From: Eutreptiella sp. 'Long Island Sound 2002'
Lineage: Eukaryota > Euglenozoa > Euglenophyceae > Eutreptiales > Eutreptiaceae
DNA: 64,000 nt
Direction of reading: 5' to 3'
Assembly (NCBI GenBank): GCA_964036045.1
Contig: OZ038390.1
Coordinates: 40,370,525-40,434,524, forward strand
A program made the translations under genes and the position numbers. The stretch's first letter is position 1; every line of letters starts with the position of its first letter. Shown here in pieces: positions 6,849-54,128 of this stretch. The notes beneath the pieces were generated by a model. The model was not told the DNA's origin. It saw only the letters and a list, made by a program, of their open reading frames with translations, and did not search any database.

Positions 6849-7380
6849 CCACCACCACCGCAGAGACGGCCACCCAGCACGACCCCGTCCAAGCCCTCGT
6901 CCACATCCCCGTCACCAAGCGCCCTGTCATCCATCCCCCACAAACCACCACCACCGCCGGCCAAACCGACCAAGGGACGTGGGACCCCTCAACCATCGTC
7001 ACCGTCAAGCCCGGCCCCCAACCCTTCCCCCATGCCCACCACATAGTGCAGCCCCGGGGACTGCCCACGATGCCCAACCCCCCACCCCCACAAGGGGGAC
7101 CGGAAAACCCACAGGGACTCCATGGGCCATACCCGCAACACCAACCCCACCACTACACACACCACCACCACCAGCGGCCCCACCACCACCACTACCAACA
7201 CCACCCCCACCACTACCACTGCCCAACGGCGTACCCCACCGGGCCACAACCCCCCGTACACCAACAGCACCAGCGGACGGGATGGCAGCCGCCGATCGCC
7301 CCGCCCGCATACCCACCCCCCCCGTACCAGCCACCACCCCCGTACCAGCCGTACCCCCGCGGCCACCATCCGATGGCCGA

Positions 7381-7500
7381 AGGGGCCCCATGGACGACGG
7401 GGGACCTCCCCCCCAAACCAGCACCGCGTGACGCCCCGTACCCCCCCGGCCACCATCCGATGGCCGAAGGGGCCCCAAGGACGACGGGGGACCTCCCCCC
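7381..7500 (+). repeat. Two tandem copies of a 66-bp GC-rich unit
   Basis: The unit around GGCCACCATCCGATGGCCGA occurs twice in tandem in the coding part of element A, each followed by GACGGGGGACCTCCCCCC. The unit length is a multiple of three, so either frame is preserved. Confidence 0.75.
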
Positions 7501-7765
7501 CTAAGCGGCGCCGCGCGAGGCCCCCCAGAGGCCGCCGACGCTTCCGGACTGGCCCGACTCGAGCGACGAGGGCCGGTCCCGCAAGCGGCGGCGCTCCCGC
7601 TCCCCCCCCGCACGGCACACTCGCCCACGGCGCCCACACTCCCACCGCGCCTCAACCACCCACTCGCGCCGCTCCCGCTCCCCCAGGTACCACCACGACC
7701 CGCAGGGACCCCGCTCCCGTCGCTTCCGCTCCCCCGGGCACCACCACGAGCGCCACCGCCGCCCC

Positions 7766-8584
7766 ATGTCCCCCTCCCCCTCCCCCCACCGGCCATCCAG
7801 CCCCCGCCACCACCACTCCCGCTCCCCCCGACGCAGCCAGGCACGCCACTGCCGCCCCACGTCCACCTCCCCCTCCCCCAACACGCCCCGCCGGGCTCCC
7901 CGTTCCCCCCGCCACCCGTACCCATCCACCACCCCCAGCCCCCGCCACCACCACTCCCGCTCCCCCGGACGCCACCGAGCGCGCCACCGCCGCCCCATGT
8001 CCACCTCCCCCTCCCGCTCCCCCCTCCGCCCGTACCCGTCCTCCACCCCCAGCCCCCGCCGCCGCCGCTCCCGCTCCCCCAGGCACCGCCACCCCCGCCA
8101 CCACCGCAGGTCCACGTCTTCCACCCGCCGCTCCAGGACCCCAGGCACGGACCCCTCCCCCCCCCGGGCCCCCGCCTACCTCGCCTGGTGGTCTCCCTCC
8201 GCTCTGCAGGAGCTCCGCCGCTGGGTGAAATGGGCCGGAGGAGCGGGAAGGCACGAAGGGGTGCACATGGTGCATACCTTCGAGGAGGTGCGCACCCGCA
8301 CCCCCGCAAACCCCAACGAGGCCGCCCCGGAGGCCATCATGCCGCAAGCGGCATGGGAGGCCCTCCTCCGCGATGCGGTCCAGGGCCTCCGCCCCCCCTA
8401 CACCCCCCAAGCCCTCCGCCAGTGGCTCCAGGCCACCCACCCCCAGGCCTGGGCCACCGGCGCCCCCTCCCCACCCCGCCCCTCCCACCACCACCACACC
8501 AGGAAGGGGCAGGACAAGGGCAAGGGAAGGGCAAGGGGCACCAAGGACCACACAGGCAAGAGGGCACTGAAGGGCCCCAAGTGA
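7766..8584 (+). CDS. SR-rich protein with MPQAAWEA domain (element A)
   Basis: A 272-codon frame. Residues 1-130 are an S/R/P/H-rich tract built from about 120-base DNA repeats (RRHHHSRSP-like units). Residues about 135-230 form a compact region with a tryptophan-rich start (YLAWWSP), LQELRRWVKW, and a core IMPQAAWEALLRDA. The minus-strand frame at 52294-51671 in element D has the same order: WWQRW, LRELRKWA, WMPQAAWEAMLADA. Similarity across two diverged copies in the same element family argues that this frame, not the long opposite-strand frames, is coding. The C-terminus is K/G-rich and basic. I do not recognise the domain. An RNA-binding ORF1-like role for the basic tract is only a guess. 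The true start is uncertain because the element is probably truncated. Confidence 0.55.
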   Translation: MSPSPSPHRPSSPRHHHSRSPRRSQARHCRPTSTSPSPNTPRRAPRSPRHPYPSTTPSPRHHHSRSPGRHRARHRRPMSTSPSRSPLRPYPSSTPSPRRRRSRSPRHRHPRHHRRSTSSTRRSRTPGTDPSPPRAPAYLAWWSPSALQELRRWVKWAGGAGRHEGVHMVHTFEEVRTRTPANPNEAAPEAIMPQAAWEALLRDAVQGLRPPYTPQALRQWLQATHPQAWATGAPSPPRPSHHHHTRKGQDKGKGRARGTKDHTGKRALKGPK

Positions 8585-9107
8585 GGGCAGGCACACGCAG
8601 GGACAGGGCGCCGGAAGCGACACCACATGGGGGCAGGACACCACCCAAGAACCAGGAAGGAGCGGGAACGGGGACCAAGACACGGAGGAAAAGGGCACCA
8701 CGACAGGTACCACGACCCACACCGACGGGGAGACCAGCGCCGCCCCACCCCCACACAAACACCCCAACACACACCACCGAAGCAAACATCGGACGCCATG
8801 CGGATCACACCAGCGCACGCCCACCGGCCACCGGAAACCACACGGAGAACGGAGGGCACACCTACACGGGGAGAACGGGCCACACCCACAGAGGAGGCCG
8901 CAGGGAACACCGCCGCACGGCACACCACCATGCCCTCACCGCCAGCCGACGACCCCGACCACCACGAAGGCCAACTCACAGGCACCGGAAGAGGACGAAA
9001 GCACGGCCGCGGCACCCACGACTACGGACCGACACCCCCAGAGGACACGGGACCAAGGCACAGGCCCCCAGGGAGGGCAACCCCACGGACCGTCACGCGA
9101 CCACACC
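8585..9107. other. GC-rich spacer in element A
   Basis: No supported gene. The sequence is purine-rich on the plus strand, with many CACC and GGGG runs, and frames stay open only because of composition. Confidence 0.5.
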
Positions 9108-9522
9108 ATGGGCTATAAGGGCCGGGCTGCGCTACCGTCGCGGTTTGACGCAGAGTATTGCTACGGGGGCTTGATCTCGGCTGGTCTCACGTCCGTGAGG
9201 GCGTCCGTCACCAACCTGTTGCGTCCAGTGGAGGAATGGCACTGCGGCGGCACACCGATCCCGTCCATGATGAATATCGAGCACCGCAAGGGGAAGCGAA
9301 ACGCTGTGATCGATCGCGAAGGCTTTGGTGCTGCTGGACGGTGCCCCCTTCAAGGCCATCTCCGAGCGCCGTGAAGACTGGAAGTGCCAAGAATACTACC
9401 GATGCCCCGGACCCCAGCAGTCCAGCACCGGAGATATGGACATCCCCCTGACCCTACAGTGTGAGCTCATCCCTGCCGGCGGCACCGACCCGGACCCTGC
9501 CAGCGCAGCCGAGCTGCAGTGA
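9108..9522 (+). pseudogene. Possible zinc-finger (FLYWCH-like) fragment
   Basis: Base composition becomes ordinary here and two adjacent frames read as one domain. The first gives MNIEHRKGKRNAVIDREGF, the next (from about 9325) gives VLLDGAPFKA, then EDWKCQEYYRCPG and SSTGDMDI. A hydrophobic VIDREGF stretch followed by a WKC..C-P pattern resembles FLYWCH fingers found in Mutator-type and host proteins, but the cysteine spacing is shorter than usual and I see no transposase core. The required frame change near 9325 means a frameshift or a small intron. Other possibilities are an unrelated gene fragment or chance. Confidence 0.25.
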
Positions 9523-10310
9523 AAGCCATTCGCCACTCAAACAGCGTTCGGAAGCCACCTCCACCGTCCGACTCCTGATGTCTGTTTGTCTGCCTTGGAG
9601 AAGGAACGCCTTTCCTACACCCCGAGTACACCTGCCTGTCTGCGAGGCCCGGTGAAGATTGAGTCCATGGGTGAGAGTCAGTGTGCACGCCCCAAGGACA
9701 CCGTGATCATTCAGCAGAATTTCCCGAAGACCTAACCGACCCACACAGGCCAGGCTGACCTCCACTGACCCACCGCGGCACCACGCGAGACCACGGCACA
9801 CCGCACCACAGCGCGCCACAGAGCAACGCACCACAGCACGACGCGACGCGACGCGGCACAGAGCGGCACAACACGACACAACTGACCCTAACCTGAGGGA
9901 CTAACCGAAGCCAGCCACCGCACACCCGGGAAGGCGCCGCGCCACCACGCCACACACCAGCACCACAGGCCACACACGGGACCACAGCGCGCCAGGCGAC
10001 AACGGTGACGGACCACCCAGAAGATTACAGCCGGCACCGCAGAGGGGTAAGGACACGAGCAACCCCAGCCCCCTAACCCAAAACCACAAGCAGCCGCCTG
10101 GCGCAGCCGCCGAGCCGGCAGAGCCAGGACCTAACCCAGCAAGAAGGGGCGCCGAGCCCACCGTGTACAGAGCCCACCCGACCCATGGGGCCGGAATATG
10201 GCCACACAGAACGCAACTGAAGACAGCAGCCCGGAACACAACACTGAATACAGGCCAGTGCGTGCGCCAGCCCAGGAAAGGCAGAGGGAGGAACAGGCAA
10301 GCCCCCCCCC

Positions 10311-10667
10311 AAAAAAAAAAAAAAAAAAAAAGGAGGGGGGAAGGGGAAAAGGCACGAAAACAGCCCACAGCCGCCCAACCACCCGCCAACACCACCACAG
10401 GCGGCCAGGCCCCCCCCCCCAGGAAAAAAAAAAAAAAAGGGGGGGGACCCCCGCAGAGGCACAGGGGAACCACCCACCCAAAACCGGCAACACCAAGCCA
10501 GTAACAGCGGACCACGGGGAAAAGGGACACGGAAAAAAAAAAAAAAAAAAAGAGAGCCACCAGCCCAGCCCGAAAGAAAGGGGATGGAGGGACAGGGACC
10601 ACAAAGCCCAAAAAAAAAAAAAAAAAAGAAAAGAAAAAACCAAAGCGCAAAAAAAAAAAAAAAAAAA
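10311..10667 (+). repeat. Array of five long A-runs in element A
   Basis: A-runs of roughly 15-20 bases begin near 10311, 10423, 10532, 10611 and 10648, separated by GC-rich segments rich in CCAGCC and AAGGGG. This looks like a decayed minisatellite whose units each carried an A-run. On the minus strand it creates poly-phenylalanine frames, which are not genes. Confidence 0.75.
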
Positions 10668-10964
10668 CACACCCCGACAACCCAGCCAAGACGGACTGGG
10701 CACAGGCGAGACCCGGGCCCAGCACACACGCCCACACCGCGCGCCGGAACCGGAAACGGCGGGGGGCAAGCGGGGCGCCCACGAAACCACACACGTCCCA
10801 AAAGCAGGCCGAAACCGAAGCCCAACCACGAACACCACAAATAGCCGACACTAGAGGGACAACACCACAAATCGAGCCCAAAAACACCCATCCTAAACCC
10901 CAGCCAGGACTGACGGGGTTAACAAAACCCGCACCCAACCGCCAACCGGACCCGAACACAAACA

Positions 10965-11458
10965 CCACACAACAGTAGGAAACCCAGTGCCCACAGCCCG
11001 GGCACTGAGGCAGCCCGTGCCATGCAGGTGACCCGGCCAAACGAGATCCGGAGCCCGGGGGTAAGGCTGCATCCTAAGGCCTGCGCTGCTTTGGGACTTG
11101 AGGCGGAGCGTGCGACACCCAAGCGCCTCGGAACCCTAGTACCAGGAACGTGCATGCACGCCTTGGGAACGGGATACGCCAGGAAGTCCGGTGAACCCCT
11201 AGGGTTCCGCCCAAAGGAGGGGACGTGCGCAAGCAAGGGGGCACACCCTCCCGGCGAGACAAGCATGTCACGCTGGCGGCGATCAGCCCTCCCGGCGTAG
11301 CCCGGGGCCGCTTTGTTGGGGGCCAACAGTCAGGTCTAGCGGGAAGTAAGCCGCCTCCCCTCTTCACGCGCGAAGCCTCTTCCTGTTCGTCACAGGGGCG
11401 ACGCCAGGGGGAACCATGGGCCGCCTCTCCACGACCGAGTGCACCTACCTACCTACCT
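10965..11458 (+). repeat. Conserved 3-prime segment and (CCTA)n tail, element A
   Basis: This segment is collinear with 37402-37894 of element B. It starts around ACACAACA.TAGGAAACCCAG, includes CCGCCCAAAGGAGGGG at 11207, and ends in CGAGTGCACCTACCTACC. In a target-primed element this would be the 3-prime untranslated region recognised for insertion; that role is inference. Confidence 0.75.
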
Positions 11459-11620
11459 CCTTGCCACTCTGACACAAGGGAACAAAGGTATGTACAGAAA
11501 CACATCAGGATATGTACACATGGGGTTAAGACTGGACTGGGGTAAGGGCATCAAAGGCCAATAGACACTCAGTCCCAACTCATATCCCAATCCCAGGTCC
11601 GACCCTCTCAGTGGCTGGCA
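11459..11620. repeat. 162-bp target duplication, right copy
   Basis: Matches 6687-6848 at every position I compared. It follows the CCTA tail directly and continues into the rest of the LTR at 11621. Confidence 0.9.
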
Positions 11621-25386: not shown

Positions 25387-28300
25387 TTGACACGTTCCCG
25401 TGGGGGGCCTGGCCACGGGACGCTGCGGTGGACACGCACAAACAAGCAGGCAGGCAAAGCACTGCGCTCACAGGGGCATCATCACGCTCGTGTCATGTGA
25501 GAAAGCGTTTCAGGATCCTTGCCACTCTGAAACAAGGGAACAAAGGTATGTACAGAAACACATCAGGATATGTACACATGGGGTTAAGACTGGACTGGGA
25601 TAAGGGCATCACAGGGCAATAGACACTCAGTCCCAACTCATATCCCAATCCCAGGTCCGACCCTCTCAGTGGCTGGCAGGGGCGGGGGCTCAAACACAAC
25701 CCATGCCCTGCCCAGTCTGGATCCTGAAACCCTGCCAATGGAGGAGGGTGTCCCGCCCAGCCACAGACGAGTTCCTGCGAACCAAGGGGCTCCAAGGCCA
25801 ACCAACAGTGGCTCCCTATGCTCCCTTAACGGCAGGTCCCAACTCCCCTCTGAGCGTGAGATAAGGCCCCGCCGTTATCCCCTAGGAGTTGGTAGCTGAA
25901 AATGGGCTGTTTCAGCCCAAACTGATATTAGCTCCGAAAACTCCAAAATTGACCCCTCCCCCGGACCCGCCAGAGGTAGGGACGAGGCAACTGACCCTAT
26001 GCTCTTTGCGTACAAACTCCCTGAAGCCCTCACCCAACCCAGTTCCCTCTGAGGTCCCGGCATCAGGGCACCACGGGTTCATCAAGTGGGGTCATGATGC
26101 CAAAATCACCAAAATTGGCGTCATTCCCACGGGTGATTCGCCAACAGGGCGAGGCCAATGGCTCACAGAGTAGGAGACAAGACCTAGGACCCATATCTGA
26201 GTGCACAACTTGAAAAGTAGGTCCTGACTCCTCATGGGCATTGAGATATGGGGCCGCCAATTGACCACACGGGGGGCTGAAATTGGGGTCCCAAAAGGGG
26301 GTCATTTTGGCTGCTCAAAATGAGCCAAAATCAGGGGTGCCCTCAAAAGTATATCTCCACGCTGGCTCGGAGATCGGATCTGCCATTCCATACCCGATCC
26401 ACCCTGAGTCCAACGAAGACTCCCATGCCCTTGGCTCCCAAAGATCTCCATGCCACTCGGCGTGGTGACAATCCAAATTGGGTCCACAATTGCCAAAATG
26501 GCAAAATCCTCCACACTCACTTTGGGCTAGCACCTTGACGAAGGTTGCTCCGCTTCGCCCACGTGGTGTGCAAACCATGGTGACCAATATCCATAACACC
26601 CATGTGATATATGGTCCATTGGTCCATGCGTCCGGCGTGCATGAGGGGGCTGAACATGGTGCACGGCGGGCAAAAAATGTGGGAAATTGCTCAAAATGGC
26701 CGAAAATGCGCACACTCATGGGTGGGGTAAATGAGGCACATGCCCGACTTGGACCGGAGTGTGCCATAGAATTGGTATCAAGTCATATTGTCCAACATAT
26801 CTTTTTGGCGTCGCCCAAACCCCTCCGGTTTTGGGAATGGCAGGGTCGCCAAGTGAGCCCATGATTTGGGATCGTCCCAAATCACCAACATGGCGGCCAC
26901 GGTACGCCAAGCTTAAAGGGAGTTGTTCGCCGGGTCCAAGATATGTTGGGCACCGAAGTGTGTACCCCCGTAACATACTTGGGTCATGATGTCAATTGAG
27001 CGCAACGTTGAGATACACGGTCGCCACTTGACATCATGACGGGCAAAAAACAGCAATATTGGCGAAAAAACACGCAAAAGTGCCCTGAAAACTGCACAAA
27101 TATATTATAATATCTTCGGCTTGGATTGAGTAATCGACCAATCCTTCTAAACACAATGACTCGACAGCAATGACCTTCGATTCCACATATGTGCTCCAAT
27201 TGGGGTGCTTTGGAAGGCTGCGCGCGCTGCCTCCCAAGTGGGCACATGCAAACATGGAATATTGCAAAAAACACACCTTGCTCGCAATGCATCGCTTCGG
27301 GAGCGCTCCACAAGCGTCCCTTCACGAAAGTTAGGCTTGCAAGTGTTGGTTCAGAATACAATGAAGGGCTTCGTGCGATATGGGGTCCATTGGCGGGTTA
27401 GTCTTGGAATGGTGCACCCGCCAAATGGGCACGTGATATGACACCAAATATGGCATACAACCCTACCCTCGCCTTCTACACCCAACCTAGTGGCCTAGAA
27501 TCAAAGTGTGCCTATATTCTAGAGTAACTTTGGTCCCTTAACACGCATGCAAGTGCTTTGGTCGAAAATCGACCTCCCTTCTGAAAGCCGAATTCTAGCA
27601 TGCACGCAAAATATATTGCCAATATATATATGGAGATCATATATGTACTATCCGGAGAAGACAAGTGATATGCCCCGGATGTAGAGGCAAGCAAGGAGGG
27701 AGAAAACGCCAACTCAACATACTTCTACACGTACTTGGACGCCAAGTACGTGAGATTGCCCATTTCTTGGAAAACACTCAAAATAAATAACCCTTTGGGC
27801 CTATGGAGTTGTGATCCTTTGGCCTCATCCTATGACTATGGGGGGCAAAACCTCATACACAGTGCCTATGAGGCACGTTAATTCGTCCTTGGGCGCTTGA
27901 ACGCTCGTAACGCTTTTTTTTTCACTTGGGGGTTCAAAGCGCCTTTGGCCGCCCAGATTTTCTGGGAAAAATCTGGGACGCGATGCATTTCATCAAGGAA
28001 AAAATTGCGGATCACTCGAAGAGTGTTTCAGTCTTCACTTCCAAAAAGACCGTTTTACAGAATCATCTATCGCAGTGCATGGAACGGGCAACGTCAGGCG
28101 GCGATTTCACGACAATTAGAAATCGCGGTAGAAATCGGGTATTTCACCGATTTCTAACCGCAAATCGACCAAGACAGTAAAATTATGGTAGTTCCACATC
28201 GATTTAATGGTTAGAAATCGGATTCGAGATTTCGCGGGTTAGAGAACAGGGATATCCCGCTGACAGCCAGTGTCAACGGCTTCCTCACGGGTGTGACGGC

Positions 28301-33655: not shown

Positions 33656-34449
33656 TACAATTTGGAGGGGTCCGCAGGATTGGAAAAGAAATCTTCAAGC
33701 GGCGAAACCCAACGGGTAGCCTGGGCCATACCCCGGACCCTATTGAAGGCGTCCACGTCGGCGTTTTTGCCAAACTGTTTTTTGACATGTGCGGCCCGAT
33801 ATGGCGTGAGGCGATAGTCAGACTGAGTCCACATGGACCCATCACGCCGTGTGGGTAGAACATCACGGGCAAGGGTTTCGGGAGCAAATTCAACGAGCTC
33901 CCAAGCACAAGCCCGATCCTGTACGGGGGCCACGGAGGAAGCGGTCAAGGCATAGAATATGTGTTTCTCGGCCTCAACACGGTTAGGCGGTTCGCCTTCA
34001 GGGGGCGTAACCACAATGGCCGGGGCCGGGTGCATAGGAGTGACCGCCCCAATGATTGGAACGGTTATGCCCCACACGGACTGACGTGACACTTTACCAT
34101 GAATGGGTTTGACCAAAAATGGCTTGCCGGTTCGTGGAGCTTCACGGAAGTCCTCAATCCAAAAATGGGGGTGCCCTGGATAATGAGAGTACAAACAATT
34201 GAAACAGGCAAAATGCTTCACACAATGTTCGTAACCCCATGGGTGCCCCAAAACCATATCCCAAGGTAAATTTGGGACATAGGTCGGGGACACGCCATAT
34301 TGGGCAACACGAGGAAGGGAAAAAACTACCATCCAAAACCCCTGTAAATTGAATTTCGACGTCTATTTGCTCATCCCCCCCCGCGGCAAAGGCGTCTCAT
34401 TATCGGCTTGGAGTAGGCGCCTCCGTTGGGGGCAGTCATATTTTTCGGA
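33338..34449. repeat. About 1.1-kb duplicated flank, left copy
   Basis: This part of chromovirus 2 pol recurs at 37895-38997. The copies start together at GGGGTTAGAGACGGCC and end together at CATATTTTTCGGA, exactly at the two ends of element B. They differ at roughly 8% of positions in the first 325 bases by eye. Confidence 0.8.
33577..34332 (-). pseudogene. pol: Protease-RT spacer with Dam-like motif (chromovirus 2)
   Basis: A 251-codon frame between the protease and RT. After a region of no known family (PWDMVLGHPWGYEHC, CLYSHYPGHPHFWIEDF) it gives VDAFNRV, TRWVSPLEDFFSNP and LYWMCPPYHQF, which match the order of the Dam-like domain in chromovirus 1 (LALDAFSS, MWNPLPP). It shifts frame near 33640; the other frame continues SDCVRKIRQDKLRAIVVGPKW. 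The duplicated copy at 38253-38455 is in frame at this place, so the shift arose after duplication. Confidence 0.6.
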
Positions 34450-37400
34450 CCGAAGCACCGAGAGCGACCGGACCGGACGAGGCGCAGCGCACCAAAGCGG
34501 GGCCACCAGGCACGCCAGGGAGGCACGCCGCCGGACACAACCAAGGCACACGGACAGGTGCCAAGCAACGACGGCCACCAGGTGCCGCAAACCCGGGCGG
34601 GGCGCACAACACGCAATGAACCACGGCACAGGAACAGGTGCCAGGCAACACTAAACCCACACACCACAAACCCCAGCCAGGAGTGGCGGGGTACAAGCGG
34701 AGAGCGCACACAAACACGCACACATCCCGACGCCCCGGCCAGGAGTGGCGGGGCGCAGCCAAAACCCGAGCCCAAGCACACACACCCCCACCGCACACCC
34801 CAGCCAGGAGTGGCGGGGTACAAGCGGAGGAAGCACACAATTACACACACACACACCCCAACACCCCAACCAGGAGTGGCAGGGCGCAGCGGAAACCAGA
34901 GCCCAAGCACACCCACCCACACCGCACAGCCCAGCCAGGAGTGGCGGGGTACAAGCGGAGCAAGCACACAAACACACACACACACCCCAACACCCCAGCG
35001 AGGAGTGGCGGGGCGCAGCGGAAACCAGAGCCCAAGCACACCCACCCACACCGCACAGCCCAGCCAGGAGTGGCGGGGTACAAGCGGAGCAAGCACACAA
35101 ACACACACACACACCCCAACACCCCAGCGAGGAGTGGCGGGGCGCAGCCGAAACCCCAGCCGAAGCACGCACACCCACACCGCACACCCCAGCCAGGAGT
35201 GGCGGGGCACAAGCGGAGCGCGCACACAAGCACACACACCCCACCACCCCAGCCAGGAGTGGCGGGGCGCAGCTGAAACTCCAGCCCAAGCACACACAGC
35301 CACGCCACACACCTCAGCCAGGAGCGACGGGGTACAAGCGGAGGAAGCACACAAACACAAACACACCCCAACACCCCAGCCAGGAGTGGCGGGGCGCAGC
35401 CGAAACCCGAGCCCAAGCACACACACCCACACCGCACCCCCCGGCCAGGAGTGGCGGGGTACAAGCGGAGGGCGCACACAAATACGCACATGCCAACACC
35501 CCAGCCAGGAAAGGCGGGGCGCAGCCACAACCCGAGCCCAAACACACACGCCCAGAACCGCACACTCCAGCCAGGAGTGGCGGGGTACAAGCGCAGCGCG
35601 CACACATGCACACACACACCCCGACGCCCCAGCCAGGAGTGGCGGGGCGCAGCCAAAGCCCGAGCCCAAGCACACACACCCAGGACGCACACCCCAGCCA
35701 GCAGAGGCGGGGTACAAGCGGAGCGCGCACATACGGCCCAACACCCCAGCTTGGAGTGGCGGGGCGCAGCCGAAACCCGAGCCCAAGCACACACATCCAC
35801 ACCGCACACCCCAGCAAGGTGTGGGGGGTACAAGCGGAGCGTGCACACAATCACGCACACCCCAACACCCCAGCCACAAAAGGCGGGGCGCAGCCACAAC
35901 CCGAGCCCAAACACACACGCCCACAACGCACACCCCAGCCAGGAGTGGCGGGCTACAAGCGGAGCGCGCACACAAGCACACGCACATCCCAACACCCCAG
36001 CCAGGAGTGGCCGGGCGCAGCCCAAACCAGAGCCCAAGCACAAACACCCAAGCAACACACCCAAGCCAGGAGTGGCGGGGTACAAGCGGCGCGCGCACAC
36101 AAGCACACACACACCCCAACAACCCAGCCAGGAGTTGCGGGGCGCAGCCGAAACCCGAGCCCCAGCACACGCACCCACACCGCACAACCGAGCCAGGAGT
36201 GGCGTGGTACAAGCGGAGTGCGCACACAAACACACACACACACCCCAACACCCCAGCCAGGAAAGGCGGGGCGCAGCCAAAACCACAGCCCAAGCACACA
36301 CACCAACACCGCACACCCCAGCCAGGAGTGGCGGGGTACAAGCAGAGCGCACACACAAGCACACACACACCCCAACGCCCCAGCCAGGAGTGGCGGGGGG
36401 CAGCCGAAACCCGAGCCCAAGCACACACATCCACACCGCACACCCCAGCAAGGTGTAGGGGGTACAAGCGGAGCGTGCACACAATCACGCACACCCCAAC
36501 ACCCCAGCCACAAAAGGCGGGGCGCAGCCACAACCCGAGCCCAAACACACACGCCCACACCGCACACCCCAGCCAGGAGTGGCGGGGTACAAGCGGAGCG
36601 CGCACACAAGCACACGCACATCCCAACACCCCAGCCAGGAGTGGCCGGGCGCAGCCCAAACCAGAGCCCAAGCACAAACACCCAAGCAACACACCCAAGC
36701 CAGGAGTGGCGGGGTACAAGCGGCGCGCGCACACAAGCACACACACACCCCAGCACCCCAGCCAGGAGTGGCGGGGCGCAGCCGAAACCCGAGCCCCAGC
36801 ACACGCACCCACACCGCACAACCGAGCCAGGAGTGGCGTGGTACAAGCGGAGTGCGCACACAAACACACACACACACCCCAACACCCCAGCCAGGAAAGG
36901 CGGGGCGCAGCCAAAACCACAGCCCAAGCACACACACCAGCACCGCACACCCCAGCCAGGAGTGGCGGGGTACAAGCAGAGCGCACACACAAGCACACAC
37001 ACACCCCAACGCCCCAGCCAGGAGTGGCGGGGCGCAGCCAAAACCCGAGCCCAAGCACACACACCCACACCGGACACCCCCGCCAGGATTGGGGAGAGAC
37101 AAGCAGAGTGCGCACACAAGCACGCACACACCTTAACAAGCCAGCCAGGAGTGGCGGCGCGCAGCGGAAACCCGAGCCCAAGCACACACACCCACACCGC
37201 ACACCCCAGCCAGGAGTGGCGGGGTGCACGCGGAGCGCGCACAGAAACACACACAGGCCCCAACACCCCAGCCAGGAGTGGCGGGGTACAAGCGGAGCGC
37301 GCACGCAAACACACACACACCCCATCACCCCAGCCAGGAGTGGCGGGGCGCAGACGAAACCCGAGCCCAAGCACAACCCAGACCTGAACACAAGCGCCAC

Positions 37401-37894
37401 ACAACACTAGGAAACCCAGTGTTCATAGCCCGGGCACTGAGGCAGCCCGTGCCATGCAGGTGACCCGGCCAAACGAGATCCGGAGCCCGGGGGTAAGGCT
37501 GCATCCTAAGGCCTGCGCTGCTTTGGGACTCGAGGCGGAGCGTGCGACACCCAAGCGCCTCGGAACCCCTGTACCAAGAACATGCATGCATCCCTTGGTA
37601 ACGGGATACACCAGGAAGTCCGGTGAACCTCTAGGGTTCCGCCCAAAGGAGGGGACGTGCGCAAGCACGGGGGCCCACCCGCCCGGCGAGACAAGCACGT
37701 CACGCCGGCGGCGATCAGCCCTCCCGGTGTTGCCTGGGGCCGCTTTGTTGGGGGCCACCAGTCAGGTCTAGCGGGAAGTAAGCCGCCTCCCCTCTTCATG
37801 CGCCGAGCCTCTTCCTGTCGGTCACAGGGGCGACGCCAGGGGGAACCATGGAGCGCCCCTCCACGACCGAGTGCACCTACCTACCTACCTACCT
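34450..37894 (+). mobile_element. (CCTA)n-tailed element B, minisatellite-filled
   Basis: This insert in chromovirus 2 pol has about 230 unique GC-rich bases, then 2.7 kb of tandem units (34640-37380), then the conserved 3-prime segment shared with element A, the motif CCGCCCAAAGGAGGGG at 37639, and a CCTA tail (37875-37894). It has no recognisable coding region and no terminal inverted repeat. The flanks are duplicated for about 1.1 kb. It looks like a severely 5-prime-truncated or non-autonomous member whose minisatellite has expanded. Confidence 0.75.
34640..37380 (+). repeat. Minisatellite of about 64/128-bp units
   Basis: Units alternate between two forms, one with GTGGCGGGGTACAAGCGGAG and one with GTGGCGGGGCGCAGCCGAAA. 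Each begins CCCCAGCCAGGA and is followed by CA-rich spacer (CACACACCCC). A half-unit is about 64 bases, so the full dimer is about 128. Some multi-unit blocks recur nearly unchanged (for example around 35820-36240 and 36430-36870), pointing to higher-order duplication. Frames over 900 codons on both strands are a by-product of this composition. Confidence 0.9.
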
Positions 37895-42714: not shown

Positions 42715-42729
42715 TCGTGTAGTACATTG

Positions 42730-43791: not shown

Positions 43792-43807
43792 GTGGCCCGA
43801 ATCTAGT

Positions 43808-44732
43808 GGCGAGTTTGGGATTCTTCCACAAGCATGGGGCGATCCCTGGTCCCTGACATAGGTTCAGACGGTGCGGGCGATGAGGCAACAGAAATAGGGG
43901 AATGATGGAGGGCGCGACGTTCCAGCACTCCAATCTCCTCCTCCTCATCGTCGTTTTCTGTTCCAACGCCAGGGGGAACCACTGGTCACACTCATCCTCC
44001 TCGATTTGCGTGGGGGATTCCTCGATGATCGTAGGATTTAGCTTGGATTCGCTTGGGGGATTGGGATACGCTCCCAAGGCAGGAGATTCCTCCACCAGGG
44101 AGGGAAATCGCCGCGATCAACTCATTGGATTGGGCGACGATTCCACCATAGTGGGGTTCTGCCTAGTCCCCAGCAGAGCTTGCTGGATCAGGGCCACGGC
44201 CTCTCGAGCCGGACCCAGATGGCCATGGGGATCAGGCGTGAGCGCGATGACTCGACGATTTTCAGCGTCGAGCTGGTCAACAATAGGGCTGACGAGCCCT
44301 GCCGCAAGCAGCTTTCTTCTGACCTGAGGCTCTGGCAACCCCCCTAGCGACGGAGGAGGGCCAGAGTCGACCACGATGGGCCCCATTGGCGAAGCCATCA
44401 TACCCCAGTCGGCAGTGCGTGAAGGTGCAGCGTTCGTACGCTCGATCACCCCAGTAGATGAGTCAATTATTGCCCGATTCTCGGCGCTAATAACGGTTCC
44501 CCAGCCCGTAATAGGCAATTGTGGTCCTTTTATCGCTCTCTGAGGGTGGCCGTCTATTTCTCCCCCAACCATCCCAGGTAAACCAGCTGGATCTCCAGGA
44601 TGGGGGGCCCCGATGGGAACATTCGGGGATTTCGGAAACTTAGGGTTTGTGGCCACCTGGGGCTTGGCCTGTTTTTGCGGCCCCTGCCCGGTCGATGGCT
44701 TCCGGGCCGAGGAGGTCCTGAGAATGGGGACC
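43808..44732 (-). pseudogene. gag: N-terminal Gag segment of chromovirus 2
   Basis: Frame 44732-44117 encodes MVGGEIDGHPQRAIKGPQL, TGWGTVISAENR, DQLDAENRRVIALTPDPHG and ends at TGA after SSPNPMS; the frame resumes with EESPALGAYPNPPSES. The inverted copy has the same TGA at 61563-61565. A frameshift near 43950 interrupts the acidic part here but not there. No known domain. The segment is cut by element C on one side and the Harbinger derivative on the other. Confidence 0.65.
44557..44732. repeat. 176-bp target duplication, left copy (element C)
   Basis: Matches 48042-48217 from TTTCTCCCCCAACC to GAGAATGGGGACC, with seven differences seen by eye. The uninterrupted arm has this sequence once (about 60951-61126). 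Confidence 0.85.
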
Positions 44733-46440
44733 AACACAGCACGCCCCACCATGAGGGGGGCTACAACCCAACGCAGCACGCCCCACCAGGGGGGGGGGCA
44801 CGCACCAGCACAGCACCAACCCCGGCCAGGCAAACAACACAGATAACCAACACCCGACAAACGCCGGCCGTGCGGCGGCGGAGACAACAGCGAACCAACA
44901 AAACCAGCCGGGCATCCAGCCAGCTACAACACCACGAACCGAAACCCGAACACGCCGACGCAGCACTCCCCACCAAGGGGGGGGGCACGCACAAACACAA
45001 CACGCCCCAACAGGGGGGGGGGCACGCACCAGCACAACAACAACCCCGGCCAAGCCAACAACACAACCGCAGCCACAACCCAACGACAACCCAAACCTAA
45101 CACCACCACCGCAGCAGGCGGCCACCAACACAGCACGCCCGACCGACAGGGGGGCCACGCACCAAAACAGCACGCCCCACACAGGGGGGGGCCACGCACA
45201 AGCACGGTACGCCCCAACAGGGGGGGGGAGCACGCACCAGCAGAGCACCAACCCCGGCCAGGCCAACACCACAGACAACCAACGGCCGACAACGCCGGCT
45301 GTACAGCGGCGGAGACAACAGCGAACCAACAAAACCAGCCGGGCATCCAGCCGGCTACAACACCACGAAACGAAACCCGAACACGCCAACACAGCACTCC
45401 CCACCAAGGGGGGGGGGCACGCACAAACACGGCACGCCCCAACAGGGGGGGGGGGCACACACCAGCACAACACCAACCCCGGCCAAGCCAACAACACAAC
45501 CGCGACCACAACCCACCGAACAGATGACGACACCCCAAACCACCCACCACGACCGCGGCGGGCAGGCACCGACATGGCACGCCCTACTGAAAGGGGGGCC
45601 ACGCACCAACGCAGCACGCCCCACCACGACGGGGGCCACAAACCAACGCAGCATGCCCCACCACAGGGGGGGGGGGCACACACGGACACAGCACGCCCCA
45701 CCATGAGGGGGGCACGCACCAACACAGCACGCCCCACCAAGGGGGGGACCACAAACCAACACAGCACGCCCCACCATGGGGGGGGCCACCCACCAACACA
45801 GCACGCCCCACCATGGGGGGGGGGCACGCACCAACGAAGTACGCCCAACCATGAGGGGGGCCGCGCACCAGCACAGCTGCCACCCCGGCCAGGCGATCAA
45901 CACAACCACAACCGCAACCCAACCGCCGACCACACCCATCCGAACACGCCGACTGTATGGCGGCAAAGACAACACCGAACAAACAAAACAAGCCGCGCAT
46001 GGCGCCAGCTAGAACACCACCACAAGCACCACCAACCCGAACCCAGCGCCGGCCCCCAGGCGGCACACACGACGACAACCCAAGCCGCACCACCACACCA
46101 CGCACAACCACCGCGGCGGACAGGCACCAACCCAGCATGCCCCACCATGAGGGGGGCCTCGCACCGGTACAGCACGCCCCTCCATGAGGGGGGCCACGCA
46201 GCAAAACAGCACGGACGACCATGCGGCGGGCCGCACGCTAGCACAGCAGCCACCTTGGGAGGGCCCACACGCCAACACAACACGCCCTACAGTGGGCGGG
46301 GGGCGCGCACCAACACAGCACGCCCTACCATGGGGGGGGCCACGCACCAACGTAGCAAACCCCGCCAAGAGGGGGGCCACGCACCAGCACAACACCAACC
46401 CCGGCCAAGCAAACAGCACAGCCCCAACCGCAACCTGACC
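44733..46440 (+). repeat. G-run minisatellite of about 35-60-bp units
   Basis: Units read CACGCACCAACACAGCACGCC, then CCACCATG and a run of 6-11 G. Longer blocks of a few hundred bases recur (compare 44890-45060 with 45310-45490). Regular long G-runs could form G-quadruplexes; not tested. Confidence 0.85.
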
Positions 46441-47560
46441 CGGGCATGGCCAACCCACACCGAAACAAGCAGGACAACTACACGTACAACGTTTGACCGC
46501 GCAAGCGCCCGCAGCAGCGCCAGGGAACCAACGCCGAACAAGCTCCATGAGGCGGCTAACACAACCGTGCACCAACAAAACCACTGCAGCGGCCACGACA
46601 TGACCACAAACAGACCACACGCCAGCCGGCCAACACCAAACCAGCCAGGCATGCAGGGGTCGAAACGGGAACGGCATCCAACAGGTGGGGGACACTGTGC
46701 TGTGCCACGCCCGCCGACCACTGTACCCACGGACACAACAGAACATGTAACTCTACCATTACGAACGCGACCAACCAACGTTAGCAAACTACACTGCACA
46801 ACACTTGGACAAACCAAAACGCAACTAACCAGCACCGACACGGACGTGCTGGCTACACAAACAACATTCGGCGATACAACCACCGGCAGCAGCGCGACGG
46901 AACCAACGCAAACCAAGGCGACCATGAGGCGGCCAAGACAACCGCGCACCAACCACCCCACAGCTGCAGCCGCCACTTGACCATAAACAGACGACACGCA
47001 AGCCGGCAAACACCAAACCAGCCAGGCGTGCACGGGTCGAAACGGGAACGGCGTCCAACGGGTTGGCGACACCGTGGTACGCCACGCCCCGACAACCATA
47101 CCCACGAACACAGCAGAACACCGCAACTCTATCGTTACGAACGCGACCAACCAACGTTAACAAACTACACAACACTACACTTGGACAGACCAAGACGCAA
47201 CCAACCAGCACCGACACGGATGTGCCGGCTACACAAACAACATTCGGCGATACGACCACTGGCAGCAGCGCGATGGAACCCACGCAAACCAAGGCGACCA
47301 GGAGGCGGCCAAGACAACCGCGCACCAACCACACCGCAGCTGCAGCCGCCACTTGACCGTAAACAGCCCACACGCAAGCCGGCCAGCACCAAAACAGCCA
47401 GGCGTGCACGGGTCGAAACAGGAACGGCGTCCAACGGGTTGGCGACACCATGGTGCGCCACGCCCGCCGACAACCATACCCACGAACAAAAACGTGACTC
47501 TACCATCACGCAACAGACCAACCAACATTAACAAACTACGCCGAACAGGTAAACGACCGA
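46440..47560 (+). repeat. Tandem repeat of about 370 bp, three units
   Basis: The landmark CCAACCAAC[GA] recurs at 46771, 47147 and 47518 (spacings 376 and 371). Each unit includes AACATTCGGCGATAC and GGTCGAAACGGGAACGGC. The G-rich units of the first half do not continue here. Confidence 0.85.
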
Positions 47561-48041
47561 CCAACCAACCACAACGACCTACTTGGAACCCCCGGCCCCC
47601 CGGGAGAGCGCAAGCTCGACCGAGTCAGGAGGCGTGACTGTGCGCCACGGCATGCGAGTCCCGTAGCACGTGCTTCTTCAAGTCGCCTCACCCCTACTGA
47701 AAACCAACCCAGGTGGGGGTGCCTGCAGGACAGGGCCTTTGGCCTGGCTCCCGGCCCCTGGGCCCCAGAATCCGGAGGTTGATGAGGATGTGCGGTGGGA
47801 CCCTCCCCCACGTATCATCCGCCCGAAGGAGAGGAATGTGACACTTCGGTCGAACATGGGTTACCTCCCTGGGCAGAACCCGCTGTAGGGTACTGCTCAC
47901 GGCGACCGCGCCCTTCCCCCACGTGGGGGAGCCGCTTTGTGGGGGCACGTGCAGTAGAGCCGTGGCTGGGTGAGCAAAAGCCCCTTGGTAAGTCCCCCCT
48001 GCGGGGCAACCCCAGTCCCGAGACGACCTACCTACCTACCC

Positions 48042-48217
48042 TTTCTCCCCCAACCATCCCAGGTAAACCAGCTGGATCTCGAGGATGGGGGGCCCCGATG
48101 GGAACATTCCGGGATTTCGGAAACTTAGGGTTTGTAGCCACCTGGGGCTTGGCCCGTTTTTGCGGCCCCTGCCCGGCCGATGGCTTCGGGGCCAAGGAGG
48201 TCCTGAGAATGGGGACC
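48042..48217. repeat. 176-bp target duplication, right copy (element C)
   Basis: Corresponds to 44557-44732; the chromovirus then continues as in the inverted arm (TGGACACCCTCAGC). Confidence 0.85.
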
Positions 48218-48230
48218 TGGACACCCTCAG

Positions 48231-48419: not shown

Positions 48420-49119
48420 AACGATAGTGTTGACTGAATAGTATCTTGCAAACAGATATGGTACACATAGCCAATGAAATACCTGATATGCACATATCTG
48501 AAATCCACCCTATCATCCACTAATTGATATAACTACTAAACATCCAAGATTGCCTTATCTATCCCACATCCTATGTTCCTAACAAGGAAATGGAGTATGA
48601 TATACCCTATCCCATATATATCCCATGTATAGGGCCATATAATGTTTCCTTAGGGGTAATATACCAGGGTAGGGTTGTGACCTGCTTCAGTATAACAATG
48701 GAGGATTGTGTTGCCATGAGTGAGCCCCATAGTGTAACACATAGCCCCCAATTGCCAATGTAGATCAGGAAAATGGACATGGCGTTTTGTTAAGCTACTC
48801 TTAAGGTAGAGTAGCCAATTACTGTACCAAATCAATGCTACTAAAAGTGAGAGCCGCAATTAAAGCTGGCAGCTGTAAATAGGTAATGTTTTAGGTCAAA
48901 TCTTGAAGTTTTTCAATGTTTTTGGTTCAATATGCAAAATCTGGCTGGTACTGCAGAAACCGGTGCCGGAAGGGGCCGCGCAGAGATCACGGGTTTGCGG
49001 TCGCGCCTGTTCTTGTGCCAGCAAAGAAGAGAGAAGATCTCAAGTACTTTAAGACGAAATTCAAAATAACCTAGACAGAAAGCTGGGAAATTTTTTTTTC
49101 TGTAGATCCATGTGTTCAG
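48420..49119. other. AT-richer region between gag and pogo-like gene
   Basis: About 700 bases conserved in both inverted arms. It contains TATATATCCCATG-type AT-rich stretches near 48615 that could be promoter sequence, possibly an LTR remnant of chromovirus 2, and the start of the pogo-like transposon. Neither boundary can be placed. Confidence 0.45.
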
Positions 49120-50210: not shown

Positions 50211-50924
50211 TGTCTTTCGGTTGGAACGTGTCTGTCAGCGCTAACCACCGAAACAAAGTGATGCAAAATGAACCCGGATCGGCTTGAAAATGGTACAACA
50301 ACTGTGCATTGGCAGTGCAATAAAAGGTATTGATAACACAAAGGTAGGTAGGTAGGTATCTTCGGGAGCTCGGGATGCCTCCTTTGACATTGCAGGACGA
50401 AGGTCTTACCAAGGGGACGTCCTGTCCCTCCCACTGCCCTATGTCAGGTGCCTCTTGAGCCGCTCCCGCATGTGCTTGGGAAGGCATTGTCGCGGCCACC
50501 CGGTCCATGTGTCCCAGGTGGGAGGGTGTCCCCACATGTGTCCATGGGTAGGGCCACATGCCCCCTCCTTTGGGCGGCAGCTCTGGGGGCTGCCCAGCCG
50601 TGTGGAGTATCTCTCACCACAAGGGGTATTGCTCCCGCTAGTCTACGGTACGACCGCCTCACCCTTGTGGCTTGAGTTGCGGGGCCACTCTGCTTGGCAT
50701 GGCGACCCCCTCCTGGACTGTGTACCAGCTCGCCTGTCACCGGTTGCTTCTATGGCTCCGGGTGACGTTTGCCATGGTCCCCGATGCAGCCTGGCCGGGC
50801 TCGGACCAGTGGCCTTGGAGTACCGCTCCTGCCACTGGCCCGGTGGGTCGGCTGGGTCGCCCCAGTGCGTCCGACCCATGGGGTGTTGGTTCTTTCCTGT
50901 CCCTTGGCCGCCCTAGGTGTGTGC

Positions 50925-51115
50925 AGTGTCCTGGGCCGCTTGGCTCCTGTTCACCGGTGTGCCCGCGCGGTTCGCTGTGTTGCGTCTGCGAGTCCTGGGC
51001 CACTTGGCTCCTGTTCACCGGTGTGCTCGCTCGGTGTGTTGTGTTGCGTGTGCGGTGTCCTGGGCCACTTGGCTCCCGTTCACCGGTGTGCGCGCTGTGT
51101 GCGGTGCGCGTGTGC
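50925..51115 (-). repeat. 65-bp minisatellite in element D, three units
   Basis: CTTGGCTCC.GTTCACCGGTGTG recurs near 50939, 51004 and 51069 on the plus strand, each followed by a GTGTGTTGCG-type stretch. It sits between the coding part and the 3-prime motif, as the larger minisatellites do in the other copies. Confidence 0.8.
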
Positions 51116-51670
51116 CATGGGTGGTTGTGTCCCTCTTCCTCCCCCCCTAATTTTCGTTTTTTTTTTGATGGAAAAAAAAGAAAAACAGGGGCGCGCGTAC
51201 ACTGCAGGCACAGGCACGGGCAGCTGGTGCGGCGGTGTAATAGAATTGTGTCCTCTGCCGTGTGTCGTCGGTGCTGTGGTGGCGGTCGCGCCCCAGGGGT
51301 GCGGCTCGCGCGTCCTGATGTACACAGGCTTGGGCCAGGGTGGGTTTGGTTAGGTGTCTCTTTGCTTCTGGAGCTGGCTGGTTAGGCGGCTGTGTGGGCT
51401 GTGGGTGTGGGCTGTGGTTACGTTGTCCCTCGGCGGGCCTGGTTAGGAGTCAAGGGGTAGCGGTTTCGGGGTGTGGCTCGGGTTTGATTTGTGTTTGGGT
51501 TTTGGCTCGGTTAGGCGGTTGCGACGGTAGCGGGTCTGGGTTCGGTGCATTTGGGCGTAGTGGTGCCCGTTGTCGTGTGCGTTGGCGTCCTTCGGCATCC
51601 GGTTCGTTTGGTGACTTCTGGGCGGGGCCTGGCGTGGCGCCCCGTGGTGGTGGTTTGCTGGGTAACGGGG

Positions 51671-52294
51671 TTAGGTGGCGGCGCCGCTGGCTGGGTGGTC
51701 AGGCGCGTCGTGTTGCGTGGTGCGCAGGGCTCCTGGGGTGCTGTGGGTGCCGCCGGTGTCGGTGCGCCGACGCTTGTGGGGTGGAGAGGGGTCGTGTGTG
51801 TGCGGGGCTGGGCTTGGGGTGATGTCCCACAGGCGGATGCCGTCTCGCTTTGTCTCCTGGAGGGTCTCCTGCAGGCGCCTGAGGACATACGGGTGGTCCT
51901 GGGGCGCGGGGAGGTTGCGGGGGTGGACTCCCAGGGGGTGGAGCGCATCAGCCAGCATGGCTTCCCACGCGGCCTGCGGCATCCACCCCCCCGCCGGCCG
52001 GAGGCGGCAGTTCTCCACCGACCCCTTGCGGGGCCGATAGACCAGGCCCTCGAGGGTGGGCTCTCCCCGGGCCCACTTTCGCAGCTCCCGGAGCTGCGTG
52101 TGGGTCCAGCGCTGCCACCACTGTCCCTGGGCGGGCCTGCGGTCTTGGGCGGAGGAGTGGGCCTGGGTGGGTGTGACGGGGTTGTGGAGACCGGTGGCGG
52201 TGGCGGGCCTGGGGGATTCCTCGTAGTCCTGTTCCGTGGGGGTGCGCGGGGAGTGGAGGCGCGCGCGGTTGTGGACCCGCGGGTGTGCGCGCAC
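51671..52294 (-). CDS. MPQAAWEA-domain protein (element D)
   Basis: A 207-codon frame. The N-terminal 55 residues are H/T/P-rich. The conserved region (about residues 58-165) has GQWWQRWTHTQLRELRKWAR, LEGLVYRPRKG, GGWMPQAAWEAMLADALHPL and PYVLRRLQETLQETKRDG. The C-terminus has a basic KRRRTD patch, possibly a nuclear localisation signal. The element A frame (7766-8584) shares the WW start, the LRELRKW-like helix and the MPQAAWEA core, with different spacing between them. Repeated occurrence suggests a domain needed by the element. I do not recognise it; an ORF1-like nucleic-acid-binding role is only a guess. Confidence 0.55.
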   Translation of the reverse strand: MRAHPRVHNRARLHSPRTPTEQDYEESPRPATATGLHNPVTPTQAHSSAQDRRPAQGQWWQRWTHTQLRELRKWARGEPTLEGLVYRPRKGSVENCRLRPAGGWMPQAAWEAMLADALHPLGVHPRNLPAPQDHPYVLRRLQETLQETKRDGIRLWDITPSPAPHTHDPSPPHKRRRTDTGGTHSTPGALRTTQHDAPDHPASGAAT

Positions 52295-53125
52295 CGTCTC
52301 CGCCTAGGGGTTGGGCGGGGACTCGCGGCGGCGGCGGTAGCGGGGCACGCGCTGTATGTGGGCTGTCATCGAGGGTTGGTAGGGGGGCGGGGACGCTGCT
52401 GGCGGACCCTGGCGTCGTTCTGGCCTGGTCGGGGGCGGTCCGTGGGCCTGGGGTGCGGGCTTTGCGAGGTGGCGGGACGAGGTGCGTCGTGCTTCGGCCG
52501 CGGCGCGCTCCGCTATGAAGGTTGTGGCGGTGGCGTCGGTGACGGTGGGGGGGCGCCGTGCTGGGCGCTGCTGCCTCCGGGCCTGGGACGGCTGGGGCCG
52601 GGTGTCATAGAGGACGTCCTCGGGGGGCCGGGCTCGCGCTGCCGTCGTGGCGCCGGGTTTGGGCTTGAGTTTGGGCTTGGCTGCGGGTTGCGGTCGTGGC
52701 GCGCTGACGGGTTTGGGTGGCTGTTTGGCGGCGGTCTTGGGTTTCGGCTGGGTCGCGGGTGTGGGCCTTGTCGGGGCGTGGGCCTTGGCGGCGGCGCGGT
52801 TGCTCGCGGTGGGGGCGGGTTTGGGGGCCCGTTTGGGAGGTGTTCCCCGCGGCCTGGGGGGTGGAGTGCTGGATGAGGACGTGGTGGTGGTGGTGGATGA
52901 GGTGGTCGTGGTGGTGGAGGTTGTGGAGTCGGAGGCGGAGGAGAGGGCTGTGGGAGACGGCGGAGGGTCCTGGGCCTCGGGGGCGGGCGTAGGATGCTGG
53001 GTCCTGCAAGTAGTGAGAACGAGGGTGCGGGTTCGGGCAGCGGGCGTGTGCGCGCGTTTTCCCTGGTGATCCGTGCGTGCTGGTGCTGGTGTGGCGGCGT
53101 TGTCTCGGCTGCGCGGGCACGTGGG

Positions 53126-54083
53126 TTACCCGGGGGGTGGCCATATCTGCTCCAGGACGTGCGGGTGTGTTTGCTGGAGGTAGTCGAGGGTGCGGAAGAA
53201 GCATCGCTGGATGCCGGGCATGTCCTCCTCTGTGAGGTGGGGGTAGTTTAGGGTAGGGGTGTCTGGGCCCGGCCACAGCAGCGCCATGAGGCGGGCTGCC
53301 ACCATGTATGGGCAGAGCTGTAGGGTGGTGGGGCGTGGGGGGGTGGGTCCCCTGCGGTTTGGGGGGGCTTCCCTCTGCTGGGGGCGCAGCGTGACCACCC
53401 ACACCCACCGGTCCGTGGGGATCCCCCAGGTCCGTTGGGTCCACTTGGCGAGGCAATACATCGCCCTACAAAGGCCCTGGCTGCCGCTGCGGATGGAGAG
53501 CAGCGTGTCCAGGGATTTGCGTTCCCACGTGCCCCAGATGGGGGGGTCGCCCGGGTCGTCCCCCCTGGCGTACGTGTCGAGGCCTGGGTTGTGTGGGGGG
53601 GGGGGCGTAGTCGGCGGGGAGGAGGGAGTCGGTGCCGTGTACCACCTAGTGGTCAGTGGGTGCATGGTAGTGGGTGGTGGAGAGGGTGTAGTGCAGATTG
53701 TACATGAGGGTCATGTACATGGAGGGGGTTGGCTGCTGGTCGTCGGGGGTGGGGATGTCCCCCGGGACGTGGTGCCGGAAGTTGCTCAGGGAGGCCATCC
53801 GGGCTGCCCATGTTTCCCGCTCCCACTCTTTGGTGTTGTCGGGGGTGGCGCCGGGTGGGGGCTGGGCCATGTTGGGTTCGCGGTAGCGGGTGCGGCCCTG
53901 GGTGCTGTCCCGCTCCGGCACGGGGTGTCCGACTAGGTGTCGCCCCCAGTCGATGGGGGGCACCCAGATCCGGCTCCCCGTGGGGGGCGGGCTCTCGCCG
54001 TCTGGGGTGGCACGTGGGGGGCGGTCGTGTCGGGCGACGTGGAGGAAGGCGTCGAAGAGGAAGTCTCGAACGCCTTCCCCCAT
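53126..54083 (-). pseudogene. N-terminal ORF of element D, unknown family
   Basis: Two overlapping minus-strand frames read as one protein. Frame 54083-53646 starts MGEGVRDFLFDAFLHVARHD and contains RIWVPPIDWGRHLVGHP, KEWERETWAARMASLSNFRH and PSMYMTLMYNLHYTLSTTHY. Frame 53665-53126 continues with TRWYTAPTP, IWGTWERKSLDTLLSIRSGS, LCRAMYCLAKWTQRTWG, LCPYMVAARLMALLWPGPD, and MPGIQRCFFRTLDYLQQTHP. A one-base shift near 53660 joins them; a TAG ends the first. Many W, Y and amphipathic helices suggest a folded protein rather than low complexity. No motif matches a reverse transcriptase, endonuclease or integrase that I know. The start lies about 30 bases inside the present 5-prime end. Confidence 0.5.
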
Positions 54084-54128
54084 GGTGGCCGCCTGGACCA
54101 GGGTGGCATAACATTAGATTCGGGCCAC

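What the first reader, a model, noticed from the sequence alone, without database searches (positions are those of the whole stretch)
6849..54112. Four copies of a (CCTA)n-tailed mobile element family with no recognised polymerase
Elements A (6849-11458), B (34450-37894), C (44733-48041) and D (50343-54112, minus) differ in most of their length but share three things: a tail of CCTA repeats, the motif CCGCCCRAAGGAGRGG 206-235 bases before the tail (11207, 37639, 47819, complement of 50577), and a copy-specific minisatellite upstream. The tail is absent from the empty sites. The 5-prime ends differ, as in truncating retrotransposons. No reverse transcriptase, endonuclease, terminal inverted repeat or poly(A) was seen.
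Basis: partly seen in the sequence, partly recalled or inferred. Interest (0 to 1): 0.88.

Follow-up and report, generated by a model that had tools for sequence, protein, structure and literature searches.

The report
Giant 26-kb LINE retrotransposon family
The four odd insertions are broken ends of very large copy-and-paste genes (LINE retrotransposons, about 26,000 bases in the one complete copy seen); their reverse transcriptase was found elsewhere in the same genome, and three of the four insertions copied unusually long stretches of their target DNA.

Summary
Four segments end in (CCTA)n, each preceded by CCGCCCRAAGGAGRGG, which has no other exact match in the window. The missing polymerase is elsewhere in the same 2.28-Gb genome. 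A locus on contig C1 ("Q") carries an APE endonuclease and reverse transcriptase, then a 1,230-codon proline/RS-rich ORF3, then the same motif and tail; about 26.0 kb lies between a 13-bp target duplication. Window element A is 98.2% identical to Q's last 4.6 kb over its whole length: a 5'-truncated copy. C matches the 3' end of a second RT-bearing locus (88%). D matches a segment downstream of a third RT ORF (93% over 381 bp). B shares only about 0.8 kb with Q. Twenty further close copies end alike and meet different flanks.

APE LINEs usually give 10-20 bp; R9's 126 bp is called exceptional. Long duplications are not universal: Q has 13 bp, and none of 160 bp or more was seen at four young copies. 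D's stated 5' end is wrong. LINE clade and host species are undetermined.

The parts
6849..11458 (+). Element A: 5'-truncated copy of the Q-type LINE
   Evidence: 98.2% identity over all 4,610 bp to Q 11628-16222
6687..6848 (+). Left copy of A's 162-bp target duplication
   Evidence: 162/162 identical to 11459-11620; single in the empty copy 25517-25678
11459..11620 (+). Right copy of A's target duplication
25517..25678 (+). Empty counterpart of A's target
7505..8584 (+). C-terminal part of ORF3 in A (RS/P-rich plus conserved domain; A's frame has a stop just upstream)
   Evidence: same frame end as Q ORF3; 56 relatives at E <= 1 in the protein database
11207..11222 (+). Shared 3' motif in A
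11444..11458 (+). (CCTA)n tail of A
   Evidence: same terminus in 20 close copies read (the tail was part of the query that found them)
34450..37894 (+). Element B: copy with about 21 units of a 127-bp array and a Q-type 3' end
   Evidence: last about 0.8 kb 82% to Q; array; 5' region shared with other loci
33338..34449 (+). Left copy of B's about 1.1-kb target duplication (inside a gypsy pol gene)
   Evidence: 1,112 vs 1,103 bp, 70 mismatches in 1,099 aligned; most of the segment single in P0057
37895..38997 (+). Right copy of B's target duplication
37639..37654 (+). Shared 3' motif in B
37876..37894 (+). Tail of B
44733..48041 (+). Element C: copy of the R-type LINE 3' region (37-bp and 376-bp arrays)
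   Evidence: 1.55 kb at 87.8% to the 3' end of RT-bearing locus R
44557..44732 (+). Left copy of C's 176-bp target duplication
   Evidence: 7 mismatches in 176; single in the empty copy
48042..48217 (+). Right copy of C's target duplication
60950..61125 (-). Empty counterpart of C's target
47819..47834 (+). Shared 3' motif in C
48027..48041 (+). Tail of C
50343..54112 (-). Element D: ORF3 and 3' region of a third LINE lineage; true 5' end unknown
   Evidence: 53727-54107 is 93% identical to a segment of L027, downstream of a LINE ORF2; weak ORF3 similarity (pairwise blastp 4e-9 to Q; profile 1e-3 to the A-family domain)
50562..50577 (-). Shared 3' motif in D
50343..50359 (-). Tail of D

Best explanation
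The four elements are 3' ends of giant APE-type LINEs. One apparently complete member (Q, C1:169,990,179-170,016,219, about 26.0 kb) carries upstream ORFs, an ORF2 with endonuclease, RT and a probable RNase H region, a long ORF3, and a 3' UTR ending in the shared motif and a (CCTA)n tail. Inferred steps: the element RNA is reverse transcribed at a nicked target, starting at the CCTA end (target-primed reverse transcription); synthesis of so long an RNA often stops early, leaving truncated copies such as A. In A, B and C the second target strand was cut 162 to about 1,100 bases downstream of the first nick instead of the usual 10-20, so fill-in duplicated that stretch. Shown: RT, endonuclease, shared 3' end, truncation (A), flush duplications. 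Inferred: priming, distant second cut. Guess: RNase H; ORF3 as a partner protein that binds RNA; B moved in trans.
For: RT-bearing copies with the same 3' end: Q (RVT_1 2.8e-15; motif and tail on the same strand) and R (RVT_1 1.6e-15; motif and tail). A third RT ORF in L027 (RVT_1 4e-15) lies upstream of the D-like ORF3 segment; its own tail was not reached. Endonuclease: Exo_endo_phos 6e-6 in Q and 1.1e-7 in L027, both above the curated cut-off. A = Q at 98.2% over A's whole length. A second copy (L049+L033) is colinear with Q from the end of the RT domain to the tail, 98.1% over 10 kb, with third-position excess in ORF2 (6/8/20) and not outside the ORFs (24/19/21). A further fragment spans the ORF2-ORF3 junction at 91% (R 28524-30000 = Q 9043-10555). 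20 close copies: same terminus, different flanks. 1,609 first-look candidates in the genome; the best 40 were scored and all are 99% or more identical. Flush direct repeats of 162, 176 and about 1,100 bp, single-copy empty counterparts.
Against: Of 9 tailed copies of which I held upstream sequence (A, B, C, D, Q, R, L006, L006b, L033/L049), 3 show long flush duplications; Q shows 13 bp inside a 3,023-bp tandem duplication; 4 (D, R, L006, L006b) show none in the sequence held; in L033/L049 the 5' end was not reached; among the 40 of 4,007 candidates scored, no second perfect 160-bp copy for L033, L035 or L038, and for L045 only one on another contig (C2197); L039 undecidable (repeat flank). Q's upstream 16 kb rests on one copy; R's RT and tail lie 11 kb apart and are linked by adjacency, strand and A-richness alone. 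RNase H is not matched by Pfam. Folding of the 3' ends is no better than shuffles. B's 5' part and array do not match Q. D's ORF3 link is weak: phmmer with Q's ORF3 start did not list D at 1e-3, and blastp of A against D found only a 47-residue match near the 3' end. With the motif removed, A-D and B-D 3' ends are not more alike than shuffles (8 and 489 of 500 reach the score).
Confidence: 0.88

Rival explanations
1. The long direct repeats are older tandem duplications into which the elements happened to insert, not target duplications made by insertion.
For: Q really does sit inside a 3,023-bp tandem duplication and has its own 13-bp duplication about 180 bp inside the second unit, so such duplications exist. 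Long duplications are not universal.
Against: For Q the offset is visible. For A, B and C the repeats are flush with both element ends; landing exactly on a unit boundary three times is unlikely. Empty counterparts are single copy. A's two copies are identical and share states that differ from the empty copy.
Confidence: 0.15
2. B (and perhaps C) is not a truncated LINE but a non-autonomous derivative with its own body, moved in trans by the Q- or R-type enzyme.
For: B shares only its last about 0.8 kb with Q; its 5' segment recurs in three other places of the L006 locus, which resemble each other further upstream than B does.
Against: No complete B-type copy with both ends was resolved; R shows that the arrays of C can be the 3' part of an RT-bearing LINE.
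Confidence: 0.5
3. A Penelope-like or other retroelement, or an element class without polymerase.
For: No RT of the family in the window.
Against: APE endonuclease and LINE-like RT upstream of the same 3' end; the only solved-structure matches at E 0.01 are human L1 ORF2p entries, best 3.5e-12; no GIY-YIG match among Pfam hits listed up to E 10 for Q's ORF2.
Confidence: 0.02

Closest known systems
APE-type LINEs (L1 / I-type non-LTR retrotransposons)
   Same: Exo_endo_phos endonuclease then RT; 5' truncation; simple 3' tail; short target duplication at the long copy Q; best solved-structure relative is human L1 ORF2p.
   Different: About 26 kb, at least three long ORFs with an ORF3 downstream of ORF2, a CCTA tail, and in three copies target duplications of 162 to about 1,100 bp.
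R9 of bdelloid rotifers
   Same: Target duplication far longer than usual (126 bp; passage in PMC6895275; title seen in the reference list of PMC2861651).
   Different: R9 is rDNA-specific by that title; its enzyme type I know only from recall. The 20 flanks read here differ from one another.
Athena / terminon giant retroelements of rotifers (recalled)
   Same: Very large RT-bearing element.
   Different: Penelope-related and telomeric by recall; nothing was compared here.
HAL1-type half-LINEs (recalled)
   Same: Copies that keep a non-RT ORF and the 3' end.
   Different: Here the kept ORF lies downstream of ORF2, so simple 5' truncation suffices.

Membership tests
LINE / non-LTR retrotransposon | Reverse transcriptase in the same element | tested here: met
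   Q and R; linked to the same 3' end, for Q backed by a second colinear copy from the end of the RT domain on
LINE / non-LTR retrotransposon | Endonuclease of APE or RLE type | tested here: met
   APE type: Exo_endo_phos 26.6 bits in Q and 32.3 in L027, cut-off 24.5
LINE / non-LTR retrotransposon | No long terminal repeats or terminal inverted repeats | tested here: met
   1,500 bases from Q's start, searched on both strands, match nothing at its 3' end (L025); ends read by eye
LINE / non-LTR retrotransposon | 5'-truncated copies sharing one 3' end | tested here: met
   A versus Q; 20 close copies with the same terminus (tail was part of the query)
LINE / non-LTR retrotransposon | Target duplication, usually 10-20 bp | tested here: inconclusive
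   13 bp at Q; 162, 176 and about 1,100 bp at A, C, B; none found at 4 others
I-type LINEs (with RNase H) | RNase H domain after RT | tested here: inconclusive
   Region conserved among three copies with motifs recalled as RNase H-like; no Pfam RNase H match
A particular LINE clade | Position in an RT tree | not testable with these tools
   No reference LINE RT set was available
Penelope-like element | GIY-YIG endonuclease or Penelope-type RT | tested here: not met
   RVT_1 with Exo_endo_phos; no GIY-YIG match listed
R9-like | Insertion at one fixed rDNA site | tested here: not met
   20 of 20 flanks read differ; no Rfam match in the window

The most novel reading that the evidence does not exclude
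A 26-kb, multi-ORF LINE, among the largest LINEs known, in which second-strand cutting is often uncoupled from the first nick, so that truncated insertions duplicate hundreds to more than a thousand bases of target and thus act as a source of segmental duplication in a genome with perhaps over a thousand copies.
Probability: 0.4. Interest if true: 0.75.

Novelty: new variant of a known kind. Interest (0 to 1): 0.6.

Why it matters
How the second target strand is cut in LINE insertion is an open question (said in passages of PMC2881922, and in the abstract of PMC6895275 as listed). A family that leaves duplications of 13 to about 1,100 bp, with over a thousand first-look candidates in one assembly and the best 40 nearly identical, would let the distribution of second cuts be measured directly. 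A 26-kb LINE would also raise how one RT copies so long an RNA and what an ORF3 behind ORF2 does.

Tried and rejected
Led nowhere: Rfam on the window (no match) and on 1.5 kb at Q's start (one chance match far below its gathering score); folding of 3' ends (45-47); AlphaFold model of the ORF3 domain, mean pLDDT 59.6, too poor for a fold search (48); solved structures for A's ORF3 part (16, none); a DNA pattern for the 3' end in viral contigs (15, none, but my gap range was wrong, so uninformative); relatives of the ORF3 domain in GTDB contigs (42, none); protein relatives of 660-2,100 aa (31, none). A spliced-leader check and a look at the first 600 bases of C1 to place the host (79): nothing. 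Paper searches: no such LINE seen in the listings; one search's listing was mostly off topic. Repbase and most subscription papers were not searchable.

Rejected: my first reading of a 2.86-kb target duplication at Q was wrong; one search showed a 3,023-bp tandem duplication with a 13-bp target duplication inside. My note that B's 5' end is a defined terminus was wrong; other copies resemble each other beyond it.
Full report
What is there. A run of three or more CCTA is preceded by the motif in 4 of 4 cases in the window, 2 of 2 in 210 kb of other stretches and 2 of 2 in seven further stretches; each of the two outside sets also has one motif-like place (up to 2 mismatches) without a tail. Beyond the 16-mer, the A-C and C-D 3' ends are more alike than all of 500 shuffles; B-C is reached by 2 of 500, A-D by 8 and B-D by 489.

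Insertion boundaries. Self-comparison of the window shows that A, B and C each lie between direct repeats flush with the element. A: 162 bp, identical. C: 176 bp, 7 mismatches. B: 1,112 and 1,103 bp, 70 mismatches in 1,099 aligned plus gaps. Unoccupied counterparts hold the stretch once: 25517-25678 for A, 60950-61125 for C. For B the counterpart is a protein: P0057, a gypsy relative from the database, holds most of the segment (its residues 1 to about 295) once, where the window has it twice. Short overlaps of about 2-4 bases between target and element at the three 5' junctions were read by eye and not tested against chance.

D. The sequence beyond D's stated 5' end is a terminal inverted repeat, TAGATTCGGGCCAC, of a 4.4-kb DNA transposon with 3-bp duplications. 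D's own 5' limit and target duplication remain unknown. D's protein link to the family is weak: profile E 1e-3 against 1,199 window frames, with 1,000 shuffles of D's frame reaching 7.5 bits at most against its 15.9; pairwise blastp 4e-9 with Q's ORF3 start, which phmmer did not list at 1e-3.

The polymerase. Two of 21 held a tailed copy. Neighbouring stretches showed RT: R = L007+L022+L024 and Q = L018+L025, with L026 and L027 upstream. Q, numbered from C1:170,000,001, has frames open from stop to stop at -299..1116, 1494-3935, 3939-9284 (1,782 codons) and 9671-13360 (1,230 codons), the motif at 15971 and the tail at 16208. Pfam finds RVT_1 in Q, R and L027 and Exo_endo_phos in Q and L027. 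The sense strand is A- and C-rich across the whole of Q. Q begins at TAAGCAACCGG after CACCCGCCCCCGA, which returns directly after the tail: a 13-bp target duplication around about 26.0 kb. Nested insertions inside Q's upstream part are not excluded. In R, RT and tail lie 11 kb apart; no second copy of R was seen.

Links to the window. A is 98.2% identical to Q over its whole 4,610 bp; B's last 0.8 kb is 82%. C's last 1.55 kb is 87.8% to R. D's 53727-54107 is 93% to a segment of L027 that follows a LINE ORF2. A second copy, L049+L033, is colinear with Q from the end of the RT domain to the tail at 98.1% over 10 kb. Q-L049 substitutions by codon position are 6/8/20 in ORF2, 17/15/26 in ORF3 and 24/19/21 elsewhere: recent constraint on ORF2, weak for ORF3. 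Between A and Q the ORF3 part shows no third-position excess (14/11/10).

Numbers. The window is C13:40370525-40434524 of a 2,280,300,865-bp assembly in 2,205 contigs; A's 3' 564 bp has 1,609 first-look candidates, and the 40 scored are all 99% or more identical. Twenty of those, chosen from the list of 40 best, were read at the junction: all have CGACCGAGTGCA(CCTA)3-5 and then flanks that differ from one another. Because the query ran into the tail, the presence of the tail in these 20 is partly by choice; the change of sequence just behind it is not. A search with five of those flanks scored 40 of 4,007 candidates and showed no second perfect 160-bp copy for three, one on another contig (C2197, perhaps the other haplotype) for the fourth; the fifth is a high-copy repeat that filled the list, so shorter or less exact duplications would be hidden.

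Mechanism. The best reading is target-primed reverse transcription from a nick, starting at the CCTA end. The duplication polarity (top strand cut downstream of the bottom nick) fits the model in the passages seen of PMC2881922. Passages of PMC6895275 give 10-20 bp for APE LINEs and 126 bp for R9 as 'quite distant'. The long second-cut distance is inferred from three copies; a pre-existing tandem duplication is the main rival and does occur at Q.

Limits. The clade is not placed. ORF3 pieces match no Pfam family. The statement that nothing like this was seen in print rests on the listings only.

Noticed in passing
54113-58534 and 42249-43800: A 4.4-kb DNA transposon with TIR TAGATTCGGGCCAC and 3-bp target duplication (AAT), and a 1.55-kb deletion derivative (duplication AGT); both rich in GCGACAGG repeats. 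It resembles Harbinger by recall; its transposase-like frames were not run against a family library.
   Followed up: partly
58816-63543 and 40581-50342: Two inverted copies, about 96-97% alike, of a further element (probably the 5' part of an LTR element, TGTTA..TAACA by recall), one of them the host of C and abutting D's tail.
   Followed up: partly
29728-34449 with 37895-39131: A gypsy element interrupted by B; its relative P0057 has a chromodomain and stands for a cluster of 946 member sequences.
   Followed up: yes
803-3113, 12027-14333, 26085-28390: A 2.3-kb repeat in three copies, about 92-96% alike, each ending in two units of a 41-bp repeat.
   Followed up: no
63542-64000: Minus-strand fragment 92% alike to the LINE region around Q (L027 and L025), without a tail in the window.
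   Followed up: no
L027:6965-9987: A 3,023-bp tandem duplication in a third LINE, into whose second unit Q inserted.
   Followed up: yes
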